Below, in pieces: positions 46,375 to 49,949 of a DNA stretch of 64,000 nucleotides. The notes below the pieces were generated by a model. It was not told where the DNA came from, ran no database searches, and was given only the letters and a program-made list of their open reading frames with translations. Position 1 is the first letter of the stretch; each line of letters begins with the position of its first letter. The stretch is from Baekduia alba (GTDB lineage Bacteria > Actinomycetota > Thermoleophilia > Solirubrobacterales > Solirubrobacteraceae). Position numbers and translations under genes: made by a program. The DNA is taken from assembly GCF_028416635.1 (NCBI RefSeq), contig NZ_CP114013.1:682001-746000 (forward strand). The letters run 5' to 3'.

Positions 46375-47052
46375 TCACCGCAGCGGGACGCCCAAGTGCA
46401 CCTGAAGGCGGCCGATCGTCGCCTCCGGGTCGTGGTGCAGGACGGTCGCCATGCCCAGCGCCGCGGCCGGCTCGAGGTTGAACGGGAGGTCGTCGACCAT
46501 CACGCAGGCCTCCGGCGCCAGGCCGAGGCGCTCGGCGCCGAGCCGGTACATGCGCGTGTCCGGCTTGCGGAAGCCCTCGTGGCCGGAGACGACGGTCGCG
46601 TCGAAGAGCTCGGCGACCAGCTCGGCCGGGTAGCGCAGCTCGCCCCAGGAGTTGGAGACCATCGCGACGCGGACGTCCGCCGCGCGCGCGTGCCTGACCA
46701 TGTCCACCATGGCGGGCTCGACGGTCGCGCCGGCCATCATGCGGTCGATCAGGCCGTCGGCGCGCTCGTGCGGCAGTCCGAGCGCCTTGGCGAGGTGGCT
46801 GGCGAACAGGTCGTCGTTCATCCGGCCCTCCTCGAAGGCGATCAGCGCGTCACGCGTCTCCTCGTCGTGGCGGAACGCCTCGCGCAGCAGGTCGGGCGCC
46901 ACGCCCTCGGTCGCGCAGAACGCGCCGAACGCCGCGAACAGGTTGGTGGTCATGACCCCGCCCCAGTCGAGGAGCAGGCCCTGGTGGGCGGCTGCGCCGC
47001 CGTGGCCGCTCCTCGACTCGTCGAGGAGCAGGCCGGTGTGGTCACTCGCCAC
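46375..47052 (-). CDS. HAD-superfamily hydrolase (subfamily IA), last gene of an ACAD10-like operon
   Basis: 225 residues. HAD motifs: I LLLDWGGVMT, II VAMVSNS, III/IV GFRKPDTRMY and VMVDDLPFN. Of the epoxide-hydrolase-N-terminal-like branch, the same HAD type that forms the N-terminus of human ACAD10. The only possible start is a GTG at 47052, overlapping the APH gene by 11 bp; it adds 25 residues in which LLLDESRSG repeats the LLLDWGG motif. Phosphatase role likely; substrate perhaps the phosphorylated hydroxyacid intermediate. Confidence 0.87.
   Translation of the reverse strand: MASDHTGLLLDESRSGHGGAAAHQGLLLDWGGVMTTNLFAAFGAFCATEGVAPDLLREAFRHDEETRDALIAFEEGRMNDDLFASHLAKALGLPHERADGLIDRMMAGATVEPAMVDMVRHARAADVRVAMVSNSWGELRYPAELVAELFDATVVSGHEGFRKPDTRMYRLGAERLGLAPEACVMVDDLPFNLEPAAALGMATVLHHDPEATIGRLQVHLGVPLR
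47008..47029. repeat. 10-bp inverted repeat and 15-bp direct repeat in the HAD gene start
   Basis: GCTCCTCGAC / GTCGAGGAGC with a 2-base centre (47008-47029) is a perfect inverted repeat. A 15-base segment, GTCGAGGAGCAGGCC, occurs twice (46966-46980 and 47020-47034), 54 bp apart, exactly 18 codons. It looks like a local in-frame duplication that extended the N-terminus. Confidence 0.7.
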
Positions 47053-48121
47053 GGGTGAGCGCCTCCGCCCGCTCGGCCAGGCCGACGACGCCGTCGCCGA
47101 AGGACTTCAGGTACGGGTCGTCGCTCATGCCGGCCGACGCGCGCTTGAAGTTGCCCTCCATGAACACGATCGACTTCCACAGCGCCAGCGTCCGGTACCA
47201 GCGGATGTCTGACATCGAGCGCCCGGACCGCTCTTCGTAGCGCGCGACGAGCTCGGCGCGCGTCGGCCAGCCCTCCCCGCGCGTGACCTTGGACAGCTCG
47301 AACTTGCCGAGCGACGGGTCGTCGCGCTCGACGTAGAGCGTGCAGAAGTACCCCAGGTCGGCGAGCGGGTCGCCGATCGTCGACATCTCCCAGTCGAGGA
47401 TCGCGGCGATGCGCGCCGGCGCGGCCGGCTCCAGCAGCACGTTGCCGAGGCGGTAGTCGCCGTGGACGACGGTCGCGGGCGGCGACGTCGGGAGGTTCTG
47501 CTTCAGCCACGCGCCGACGACCTCGACGGCCGGGATCTCGCGCGTCTTGTTGTGGTCCCAGAGCCCGAGGAAGCGGCGCAGCTGGCGCTCGAGGTAGCCG
47601 TCGGGCTTGCCGAAGCCCTCCAGCCCGGCCGCGCGCCAGTCGACGCCGTGCACCTCGACCATCGCGTCGATCAGGTCGTGCGCCGTGCGCCGCCGCTCCT
47701 CGGGCGTGTCGAGCACGGCCGGCATCGCGGTCGTGACGACGAAGCCCTCGACCAGCTCCATCACGTAGAACGGCGCGCCGATCACCGACGCGTCGTCGTT
47801 GACGGCCAGGACCCTCGGGACGCGCGCGCGGCCCTCGAGCCCGCGCAGGACGCGCGCCTCGCGCAGCATGTCGTTGGCCGACGGCGGGATCGGCGGCCGC
47901 GGCGGGCGGCGCAGCACGAAGCGCGCGCCGCCGCGCTCGAACAGGTACGTGGCGTTGGAGTGGCCGTCGCCGATCGGGCTGATCGTCGGCTCGCCGGCGC
48001 CGAGCCCGTGCTCGTCCAAGAACGACAACAACGGCTCGATCACGAGCAGCGGCGGGCGGTCGTTGCCCTCGCCCTCGGCGTGGGTGCGGACGACGTCGTC
48101 GGGTGCGATCTCGTGGGGCAT
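47042..48121 (-). CDS. APH-like phosphotransferase (ACAD10/11 N-domain type, LvaA-like)
   Basis: 359 residues. Aminoglycoside-phosphotransferase fold: ISPIGDGHSNATYLF, FVLRRPPR (ATP lysine equivalent region), catalytic VVHGDYRLGNVLL and metal-binding AILDWEMSTIGDPLADLGY. Homologues fused or next to acyl-CoA dehydrogenases phosphorylate the hydroxyl of 4-hydroxyacyl-CoA (LvaA in Pseudomonas, ACAD10/11 in animals). The ATG at 48121 directly abuts the ACAD stop. Hydroxyacid kinase activity is inferred from context. Confidence 0.9.
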   Translation of the reverse strand: MPHEIAPDDVVRTHAEGEGNDRPPLLVIEPLLSFLDEHGLGAGEPTISPIGDGHSNATYLFERGGARFVLRRPPRPPIPPSANDMLREARVLRGLEGRARVPRVLAVNDDASVIGAPFYVMELVEGFVVTTAMPAVLDTPEERRRTAHDLIDAMVEVHGVDWRAAGLEGFGKPDGYLERQLRRFLGLWDHNKTREIPAVEVVGAWLKQNLPTSPPATVVHGDYRLGNVLLEPAAPARIAAILDWEMSTIGDPLADLGYFCTLYVERDDPSLGKFELSKVTRGEGWPTRAELVARYEERSGRSMSDIRWYRTLALWKSIVFMEGNFKRASAGMSDDPYLKSFGDGVVGLAERAEALTRGE

Positions 48122-49351
48122 CTACGCGAGGTCTCCGGTCGCGGCCTTCGTGGACTCGCCGGACATCGCCAGCTTGAGCAGCTCGCGGGCGATCGTCATG
48201 CGGTGCACCTCCGAGGCGCCGTCGTAGATGCGCGCCGCGCGCGCGTCCTGGTAAATGCGGCCGACCGGCAGGTCGAGCGCGATGCCGGCGGCGCCGTGGA
48301 TCTGCACGGCGCGGTCGGCGATGCGGCCGAAGGCCTCCGACACGAAGGTCTTGGTCATCGCGACCTCCTGGCGGTGGGGGAGGCCGTGCTCCAGCTTCCA
48401 GGCCGTGTGCAGGACCATCAGCCGCGAGGCGTAGAGGTCCATCGCGCTGTCGGCGATCATCGCCTGGAGCATCTGGTGGCGCGCGAGCTCCTTGCCGAAC
48501 GCCCTGCGCTCCAGCAGCCGCGCCGTCGCCAGGTCCAGCGCGCGCTGCGACATCCCGATCCAGCGCATCGCGTGGGCGAGGCGGCCGCCGGCCAGGCGCT
48601 TCTGGGCGATGACGAAGCCCTCGCCCTCGGCGCCGAGCAGGTTGCTCGCCGGGACGCGCACGTCGGTCAGCGTGATGATCGGATGGCCGCCGGGCGAGTG
48701 GCTGCCCATCCACTCCGGGTCGCGCTCGACGGCCCAGCCGGGCGTGTCGGTCGGGACGAGGATGAGGCTGTAGTTGCGATGGCCGCGCGCCTCGTCGTCG
48801 CCCGTCTTGGCCACCACGATGCTGAACGCCGCGCCGATCGCCCCGGTGATGCACCACTTGCGGCCGTTGATGACGTACCCGGTCCCGTCGTCGGACCGGG
48901 CGGCCGTCGTCTCCAGGTTCGTGGGGTCGCTGGAGGCGACGTCCGGCTCGGTCATCGCGAAGCACGAGCGGATCGCGCCGTCGGCCAGCGGGCGCAGCCA
49001 GCGGTCCTTCTGCTCCTCGCTGCCCGCGATGAGCAGGGTGTGCATGTTGCCCTCGTCGGGCGCCATGCAGTTCATGCCCAGCGCGCCGAGCGGCGCGGTG
49101 CCCAGCTCCTGCGAGATCAGGGCCATGCCCAGCGCGCCGATGCCCACTCCGCCGTACTCCTCGGGCAGGTGCGGGGTGAAGATCCCGCGCTCGCGCGCCC
49201 GGTCGCGCAGCCGCTCGACGACCGCCCACGAGCCCAGCACGTCGTCGGGGTCGGCGATCTCGGACTCGGCCGGGATGACGTCCTCCGAGATGTAGGCCTT
49301 GATCCGGCCCAGGAGCTCGGTGAGCTCCGGCGGCACGGTGAAGTCGATCAC
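48122..49351 (-). CDS. Acyl-CoA dehydrogenase (ACAD10/11 / LvaC type)
   Basis: 409 residues from a GTG overlapping the TetR stop (GTGA). ACAD features: FTPHLPEEYGGVGIGALG, CFAMTEPDVASSDPTNLETTA (FAD/substrate loop), WCITGAIGAAFSIVVAKT, RRAFGKELARHQMLQ, VQIHGAAGIALDLPVGRIYQDARAARIYDG (seen in parts), ASEVHRMTIARELL. The DGASEVHR end is that of the ACAD10/11 branch. In that branch the enzyme works on 4-phosphoacyl-CoA, with loss of phosphate, rather than simple dehydrogenation. FAD-dependent, cytosolic. Confidence 0.93.
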   Translation of the reverse strand: MIDFTVPPELTELLGRIKAYISEDVIPAESEIADPDDVLGSWAVVERLRDRARERGIFTPHLPEEYGGVGIGALGMALISQELGTAPLGALGMNCMAPDEGNMHTLLIAGSEEQKDRWLRPLADGAIRSCFAMTEPDVASSDPTNLETTAARSDDGTGYVINGRKWCITGAIGAAFSIVVAKTGDDEARGHRNYSLILVPTDTPGWAVERDPEWMGSHSPGGHPIITLTDVRVPASNLLGAEGEGFVIAQKRLAGGRLAHAMRWIGMSQRALDLATARLLERRAFGKELARHQMLQAMIADSAMDLYASRLMVLHTAWKLEHGLPHRQEVAMTKTFVSEAFGRIADRAVQIHGAAGIALDLPVGRIYQDARAARIYDGASEVHRMTIARELLKLAMSGESTKAATGDLA

Positions 49352-49932
49352 AACAGGTCCTCCAACAGGGATCGGAACTTGGCGACCCACCGGCGCTGCT
49401 GCGCCGGCGGCTCGAGCTGCTGGGTCAGGAAGCCGGCCAACGCGGCGTTGACGGTGAGCCCGACGGCCTCGGCGTCGAGCGTCGCGTCGATCGAGCCGTC
49501 GCGCTGACCCTGGCGCACGAGGTCGATCATGAACTCGCGCTGGTTGCCCTGCATGCGCCGGGCGATGTCGGCGAGCGCCGGGCGGTCGGCCGCGGCGGCG
49601 ACGTGCAGCGAGCCGAGCACGCGGTAGAACGGCGTGCCGGACGCGTAGAGCCGCGCGCTGGCGTCGACCAGCGCGAGCAGCCGCGCGCGCCCGTCGCCGG
49701 CGGCCGACGCCGCCACGACGCGCTCGGCGTGGCGGCGGATCGCCTCCTTGTAGACGGCCTCCACCAGCCCCTCCTTGGAGCCGAAGTGGTGGTACAGCGC
49801 GCCCTTGGTCACGCCCACGTCGGCGGCCACGGCGTCGAACGAGGCGCCCAGCCCGTCGGCCGCGAAGCGCTCGATCGCGGCGTCGATGAGGCGGGTGCGC
49901 GTGACCTGCGCGGCTGCGGCCCGACTTGCCAT
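49348..49932 (-). CDS. TetR-family regulator of the acyl-CoA dehydrogenase operon
   Basis: 194 residues from the ATG at 49932, chosen because it begins MASRAAAAQVTRTRLI, places a -10 box 9 nt upstream and lies on a palindromic operator. HTH: LGASFDAVAADVGVTKGALYHHFGSKEGL. C-terminal ligand pocket is helical (FYRVLGSLHVAAAADRPAL). First gene of the operon TetR - ACAD - APH - HAD, all overlapping or abutting, so it probably represses itself and the enzymes and is released by an acyl-CoA. Confidence 0.93.
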   Translation of the reverse strand: MASRAAAAQVTRTRLIDAAIERFAADGLGASFDAVAADVGVTKGALYHHFGSKEGLVEAVYKEAIRRHAERVVAASAAGDGRARLLALVDASARLYASGTPFYRVLGSLHVAAAADRPALADIARRMQGNQREFMIDLVRQGQRDGSIDATLDAEAVGLTVNAALAGFLTQQLEPPAQQRRWVAKFRSLLEDLL

Positions 49933-49949
49933 ACCTACTCGAAGGTATG
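49930..49949. promoter_or_regulatory. TetR-type operator overlapping the -10 box and start codon
   Basis: CATACCT and AGGTATG (49930-49936 and 49943-49949) form a 7-bp inverted repeat around a 6-bp centre. The minus-strand -10 TACCTT (49947 to 49942) and the ATG of the TetR gene both lie in it. This is the usual ATACC..GGTAT shape of TetR operators, so autoregulation is likely. Confidence 0.7.

What the first reader, a model, noticed from the sequence alone, without database searches (positions are those of the whole stretch)
46375..49949. A split ACAD10/11-like operon: TetR, acyl-CoA dehydrogenase, APH kinase, HAD phosphatase
The four genes abut or overlap and carry the three domains that are fused in animal ACAD10 (HAD, APH, ACAD) and partly in ACAD11. 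In Pseudomonas, LvaA (APH) and LvaC (ACAD) convert 4-hydroxyacyl-CoA to 3-hydroxyacyl-CoA through a phosphorylated intermediate. Here the HAD joins them as a separate gene, under a TetR repressor with its own operator, in an organism group where I know of no such pathway described. The job of the HAD domain is unsettled, so this operon could help define it.
Basis: partly seen in the sequence, partly recalled or inferred. Interest (0 to 1): 0.72.

Follow-up and report, generated by a model that had tools for sequence, protein, structure and literature searches.

The report
Split ACAD10-like operon with kinase-paired HAD
A soil-type actinobacterium carries, as separate neighbouring genes under one repressor, the same three enzyme parts that animals fuse in the fat-breakdown protein ACAD10, and across Actinomycetota the poorly understood HAD part travels with the kinase, which gives a simple bacterial system for finding out what it does.

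Summary
In detail: four abutting minus-strand genes (TetR, ACAD, APH kinase, HAD) and a palindrome over the tetR start codon, its core exact in five sampled relatives and unique in the genome. The ACAD is not an ordinary short- or medium-chain enzyme. It carries the ACAD10/11/LvaC signature (R...HxMR...catalytic Asp) and falls in that clade with full support, but in a subclade separate from ACAD11; the genome's nearest ACAD11 relative is another gene. The kinase keeps its catalytic residues but is only 30% identical to ACAD11's. The new point is the HAD: in 61 of 71 named loci it lies directly downstream of the kinase, usually without the ACAD. Full ACAD-APH-HAD operons also occur in two other families, with ACADs of both subclades. 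So the HAD is mainly a kinase partner, as in the mature N-terminal half of ACAD10. Its first motif is DxGG in all 46 homologues; ACAD10 likewise lacks the second Asp. The nucleophile, Lys and Asp-Asp are kept, and the phosphatase YihX has the same Gly, so phosphatase and kinase-restraining roles both stay open. Substrate and activities are inferred. It is not an lva operon. New variant of a known kind.

The parts
49930..49949 (.). Probable TetR operator: 20-bp palindrome CATACCTACTCGAAGGTATG overlapping the tetR start codon
   Evidence: 1 match, 0 in shuffles; core exact in L038, L039, L051, L091, L117 and near-exact in L052; core exact only once in the genome
49348..49932 (-). TetR-family regulator, 194 aa
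   Evidence: Pfam TetR_N 1.3e-13; homologues in the same place in L038, L039, L051, L052, L091, L117, L118
48122..49351 (-). Acyl-CoA dehydrogenase, 409 aa, of the ACAD10/11/LvaC signature clade (R...HAMR...catalytic Asp), subclade A
   Evidence: Pfam; best PDB matches ACAD11 8v3u/2wbi and 4hr3; signature residues; trees
47042..48121 (-). APH-fold kinase, 359 aa; HGDYRLGN catalytic loop at residue 220, DWE metal motif at residue 243
   Evidence: Pfam APH 4.4e-47; PDB 9o56, 3dxp and ACAD11; motifs and identities
46375..47052 (-). HAD-fold protein with DxGG motif I; predicted nucleophile D28, motif II S132, K162, D186/D187; nearest solved fold is the N-terminal domain of soluble epoxide hydrolase
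   Evidence: TIGR02247 100.5 bits, below the 125.4 cut-off; invariant residues in 46 homologues; model pLDDT 93; Foldseek

Best explanation
This is a self-regulated operon that encodes the ACAD10 activities as separate proteins. The APH kinase would phosphorylate a 4-hydroxyacyl-CoA (or a similar gamma-hydroxyacyl-CoA) with ATP. The ACAD, using FAD and an active-site Asp with two Arg and a His that hold the phosphate, would eliminate the phosphate to give a 2-enoyl-CoA for beta-oxidation. The HAD is a partner of the kinase: it most likely binds the phosphorylated product or the kinase through its conserved Asp/Mg site and limits build-up of 4-phosphoacyl-CoA, by restraining the kinase as in ACAD10, by slow hydrolysis, or by both. 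TetR represses the operon by binding the palindrome over its own start codon and is probably released by an acyl-CoA-type ligand. Shown here: gene order, operator, ACAD signature and clade, kinase motifs, HAD motifs, and HAD-kinase linkage across the phylum. Inferred: substrate, reactions, HAD function and ligand.
For: ACAD signature R..HAMR..D equals that of 4hr3 and, but for one residue, of ACAD11 (R..HCMR..D); only 4 of 28 ACADs compared from this genome have it, and most of the others have the usual Glu. The signature clade has 100/100 support and includes human and mouse ACAD11. In mouse ACAD11 these residues are needed or implicated for 4-phosphoacyl-CoA turnover (PMC12440821). Kinase motifs HGDYRLGN and DWE are present. 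The HAD lies directly downstream of the kinase in 61 of 71 loci and next to it in 22 of 29 loci of the phylum sample. ACAD-APH-HAD operons occur with two different ACAD subclades and with different flanks. ACAD10's HAD stays with the kinase after cleavage, lacks the second Asp, and D48A raises kinase output (PMC11342911); the bacterial HAD has the same lack. Operator.
Against: No substrate evidence: the flanks hold no lactonase, CoA ligase or ketoreductase, and the kinase is 30% identical to ACAD11's, closer (41%) to PDB 9o56, whose substrate I do not know. The ACAD is outside the ACAD11 subclade. HAD homologues without the kinase exist (Dactylosporangium, Actinospica), so the HAD has or had other uses. 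I could not compare with an ACAD10 HAD sequence.
Confidence: 0.62

Rival explanations
1. The HAD is a true phosphatase for housekeeping: it hydrolyses 4-phosphoacyl-CoA or the dead-end 4-phospho acid when the ACAD lags, undoing the kinase step.
For: All phosphotransfer residues except Asp+2 are invariant (D28, K162, D186, D187 in 46 of 46). YihX, named a glucose-1-phosphatase and solved with a transition-state analogue (8pno), also has Gly at +2 (DLGN). The nearest solved fold is the phosphatase domain of soluble epoxide hydrolase. In P. citronellolis a histidine phosphatase gene lies next to the lvaA homologue (PMC6692424).
Against: ACAD10's HAD showed negligible phosphatase activity on 4-phosphohydroxyhexanoyl-CoA (PMC11342911). 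A phosphatase made together with the kinase would run a futile cycle unless it is controlled.
Confidence: 0.3
2. The kinase and ACAD act on another hydroxylated acyl-CoA (for example branched, cyclic or terpenoid-derived), not on plain 4-hydroxy fatty acyl-CoAs, by the same phosphorylate-then-eliminate chemistry.
For: The ACAD forms its own subclade. This genome has three further signature ACADs, one much closer to ACAD11 (53%) in an operon with a CoA ligase and an SDR, which may be the plain 4-hydroxy acid enzyme.
Against: The phosphate-binding residues are the same as in ACAD11; nothing in the neighbourhood points to another substrate.
Confidence: 0.3
3. The gene cluster reflects inherited synteny, and the HAD has no functional tie to the kinase and ACAD.
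For: In close relatives the flanks (SixA, thioredoxin-NHL protein, sensor kinase) are also conserved.
Against: Linkage persists in other families with different flanks, with two ACAD subclades, and in a few loci with the kinase on the opposite strand (L020, L021, L115).
Confidence: 0.05

Closest known systems
Animal ACAD10 (HAD-APH-ACAD fusion)
   Same: The same three domains. The HAD is tied to the kinase: mature ACAD10 is cleaved so that HAD and kinase stay together (PMC11342911). The HAD lacks the second Asp of DxD. The ACAD has the Arg/His/Arg/Asp signature.
   Different: Separate genes in reverse order (ACAD-APH-HAD) under a TetR regulator; the ACAD belongs to a different subclade from ACAD11; orthology of the HAD was not tested, as no ACAD10 sequence was available.
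Animal ACAD11 (APH-ACAD fusion; PDB 8v3u, 8v3v, 2wbi)
   Same: Best PDB match of the ACAD (265 bits); kinase homologous (30% identity); catalytic and phosphate-site residues kept.
   Different: ACAD11 has no HAD; 39.6% identity only; ACAD11 falls in the sister subclade.
Pseudomonas putida lva operon (lvaABCDE...)
   Same: Separate APH kinase and signature-type ACAD genes in one operon.
   Different: No LvaB, LvaD or LvaE equivalents and no sigma-54 LvaR here; HAD and TetR instead. lvaABCD homologues were reported from Proteobacteria (PMC6692424).
E. coli YihX and the N-terminal phosphatase domain of soluble epoxide hydrolase
   Same: Same HAD fold by profile and structure; YihX shares Gly at motif I +2.
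   Different: Soluble epoxide hydrolase has the full DxD; I know of no APH kinase tied to either.

Membership tests
ACAD10/11/LvaC-type acyl-CoA dehydrogenases | Catalytic Asp in place of Glu, the upstream Arg and the HCMR-type motif | tested here: met
   R..HAMR..D in the window protein; R..HCMR..D in mouse ACAD11; R..HAMR..D in 4hr3
ACAD10/11/LvaC-type acyl-CoA dehydrogenases | Falls with ACAD11 apart from ordinary ACADs in a tree | tested here: met
   Clade of 39 rows, 100/100 support, stem 1.37
ACAD11 ortholog group proper | Nested in the subclade that holds ACAD11 | tested here: not met
   Window ACAD in the sister subclade; own-genome gene L155 is in the ACAD11 subclade
ACAD10/11-type 4-hydroxyacyl-CoA kinases | Catalytic Asp and Asn of the HGDxxxxN loop and the metal Asp | tested here: met
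   HGDYRLGN at residue 220 and DWE at residue 243
ACAD10/11-type 4-hydroxyacyl-CoA kinases | Groups with the ACAD11 kinase apart from other APH kinases | tested here: inconclusive
   30% identity; ACAD11 and 3dxp fall outside the window-type clade; long branches
lva operon | LvaB, LvaD and LvaE genes and the sigma-54 regulator LvaR | tested here: not met
   Only TetR, ACAD, APH and HAD are in the operon; lva gene set from PMC6692424; LvaB itself was not available as a query
ACAD10 HAD domain | First Asp kept, second Asp of DxD missing | tested here: met
   DxGG in all 46 homologues; ACAD10 described so in PMC11342911
ACAD10 HAD domain | Sequence orthology to animal ACAD10 HAD | not testable with these tools
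   No ACAD10 sequence held; a resemblance of motif I and the C-terminal end is from memory only
ACAD10 HAD domain | Physically or genetically tied to the kinase | tested here: met
   61 of 71 loci directly downstream of the APH; genetic linkage only
TIGR02247 HAD family | Score over the curated cut-off | tested here: not met
   100.5 bits against 125.4; still the best of all NCBIfam models for it

The most novel reading that the evidence does not exclude
Actinomycetota carry a regulated form of the 4-hydroxyacyl-CoA pathway in which a DxGG HAD protein is a dedicated product-sensing regulator of an acyl-CoA kinase. Animal ACAD10 would be a fused descendant of, or a parallel to, such a kinase-HAD unit. 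This would be a HAD fold used for metabolic feedback on a small-molecule kinase.
Probability: 0.3. Interest if true: 0.75.

Novelty: new variant of a known kind. Interest (0 to 1): 0.52.

Why it matters
The job of the HAD domain of ACAD10 is unsettled: the one study that tested it found little phosphatase activity but a restraining effect on the kinase, and the structural study left it aside (PMC11342911, PMC12440821). Here kinase, HAD and ACAD are small separate bacterial proteins, so each can be added or left out, and natural operons with and without the HAD can be compared. The linkage data say the HAD works with the kinase step rather than the ACAD step. The finding also extends the phosphorylated 4-hydroxy acid route, reported so far from Proteobacteria and animals in the papers I could read, as a prediction to a wide range of Actinomycetota, with a regulator of its own.

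Tried and rejected
(1) Natural APH-HAD or TetR-ACAD fusions as further evidence: two apparent ones were found. The APH-HAD one (L018/L127) comes from a frameshift near the APH C-terminus of a metagenome contig. The TetR-ACAD one (L091) has no stop between the genes but crosses a run of nine C. Neither was used. (2) Finding the substrate through other genes of the TetR regulon: the operator core has no second exact copy in the genome, the near matches are no commoner than the control pattern, and the one 1-mismatch site lies by sugar-transporter and IclR-type genes as I read them. (3) Substrate clues from neighbours of operons in other families: only unrelated genes such as cytochrome oxidase, GreA and cyclophilin. 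(4) Literature on actinobacterial versions: no paper in the library; the 2017 lva paper itself is not held. (6) A binomial chance value for the linkage is not used as evidence, since the loci are related.

Full report
What is there. On the minus strand of the window lie four genes in one direction: tetR 49348-49932, an acyl-CoA dehydrogenase (ACAD) 48122-49351, an APH-type kinase 47042-48121 and a HAD-fold protein 46375-47052. Their ends abut or overlap by a few bases, which suggests translational coupling. Pfam places all four over its curated cut-offs. A 20-bp palindrome, CATACCT-6-AGGTATG, covers the tetR start codon (49930-49949). It is exact in the same position in L051 and L117; its 18-bp core is exact also in L038, L039 and L091; L052 has a near copy. 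No shuffle of the window gives it and the genome holds no second exact core. The genome is a single 5.86-Mb contig; named relatives are Conexibacter, Paraconexibacter and other Solirubrobacterales.

The ACAD. Its best solved relatives are mouse and human ACAD11 and 4hr3. The work on ACAD11 names an active-site Arg, an HCMR motif and a catalytic Asp (instead of the usual Glu) as the features that fit the enzyme to 4-phosphoacyl-CoA (PMC12440821). The window ACAD has R, HAMR and D at those places. Of 28 ACADs compared from this genome, four have the set; most others have the usual Glu. In a maximum-likelihood tree all signature proteins form one clade (100/100) that includes ACAD11, and the window protein sits in one of its two main subclades, ACAD11 in the other (a wider quick tree agrees). 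The nearest ACAD11 relative in this genome is another gene (L155, 53% identity against 39.6%), which sits with a CoA ligase and an SDR, as I read the open frames, and no kinase. So 'ACAD10/11-like' is right at clade level, 'ACAD11 ortholog' is not.

The kinase. The APH has the HGDYRLGN loop and the DWE metal motif. Identity is 30% to the ACAD11 kinase, 33% to 3dxp and 41% to 9o56. The tree does not place it firmly with the ACAD11 kinase. The genome has seven APH-family genes, of which only this one and one at C1:495045 score strongly.

The HAD. The nearest solved folds are the phosphatase domain of soluble epoxide hydrolase and E. coli YihX (profile search; AlphaFold model with pLDDT 93 and Foldseek). 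Across 46 homologues the first Asp (D28), Lys162 and Asp186-Asp187 are invariant, and the position two after the first Asp, normally the acid/base Asp, is Gly in every one. The same loss of the second Asp is reported for ACAD10, where the HAD showed negligible phosphatase activity and mutation of the first Asp raised kinase output (PMC11342911). One caution must be set against reading the loss as proof of no catalysis: YihX, solved as a glucose-1-phosphatase with a transition-state analogue, has the same Gly (DLGN).

The new evidence: whom the HAD travels with. Of 71 named loci with enough upstream sequence, chosen by HAD similarity alone, 61 have the APH directly upstream on the same strand, mostly overlapping or within about 60 bases; one more has it divergent. 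Only six of the 61 also hold a signature ACAD within the locus, and five of these are full TetR-ACAD-APH-HAD operons (L051, L052, L091, L117, L118). In a sample of 296 Actinomycetota genomes the best 29 newly taken HAD loci have a neighbouring APH in 22 (a few of these genomes had been seen before, the window's own among them). Full ACAD-APH-HAD operons also occur in two other families: L215-L217 with an ACAD that groups with the window's subclade, and L214 with an ACAD11-subclade enzyme. The flanks I annotated there (L214, L215) are unrelated to the window's. Among the 41 genomes of the relatives search every genome with a close HAD also has an ACAD match at E below 1e-70, and the ACADs of that strength that were read carry the signature. 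Conversely some operons have ACAD and APH without HAD (L033, L035). The HAD is thus an accessory of the kinase, not needed for the core route, just as ACAD11 and LvaA/LvaC work without it. Exceptions, where HAD homologues stand without the APH, are Dactylosporangium and Actinospica.

Mechanism. The best-supported reading is: kinase makes 4-phosphoacyl-CoA from a 4-hydroxyacyl-CoA, ACAD eliminates the phosphate to a 2-enoyl-CoA, HAD limits the phosphorylated intermediate by acting on or with the kinase, TetR controls the set. The first two steps rest on homology at conserved catalytic residues; the HAD step rests on linkage and on the ACAD10 experiment; the TetR step on the conserved palindrome. 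Accessory partners of this kinase seem to be a theme: LvaB binds LvaA in P. putida, and P. citronellolis has a histidine phosphatase gene by its lvaA homologue (PMC6692424).

What is not shown. No substrate, no activity, no binding. LvaA, LvaC and ACAD10 sequences themselves were not available, so comparisons used ACAD11 (PDB) and published statements. The tree of kinases has long branches. The linkage counts come from related genomes and are not independent events.

Noticed in passing
Genome C1:911500-918500 (L155): CoA ligase, SDR and the genome's closest ACAD11 relative (R..HCMR..D, 53% to mouse ACAD11) in one operon without a kinase beside it: a possible kinase-in-trans arrangement.
   Followed up: partly
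Genome C1:484500-499500 (L143): A second region with a signature ACAD (R..HAMR..D, at 486987), an APH kinase (494991) and a further ACAD (496037) that lacks the catalytic Glu in the alignment.
   Followed up: partly
window 46965-47052: The HAD has about 18 extra N-terminal residues (GLLLDESRSGHGGAAAHQ before GLLLDWGG) that look like a partial duplication, absent from the 89%-identical relative L002 and poorly predicted in the model.
   Followed up: partly
L106 5974-8440; L081 2420-4929: In Actinospica the close HAD homologue (about 50% identity) lies next to a 611-612-residue protein that resembles, from memory, a FadE5-type acyl-CoA dehydrogenase, with no APH.
   Followed up: partly
L091 3600-3690: In Paraconexibacter antarcticus tetR and the ACAD read in one frame without a stop, across a run of nine C: a possible TetR-ACAD fusion or a sequencing slip.
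   Followed up: partly
L020/L043, L021/L044 and L115: A second layout in related families: HAD beside a kinase on the opposite strand and an ACAD11-subclade ACAD.
   Followed up: partly
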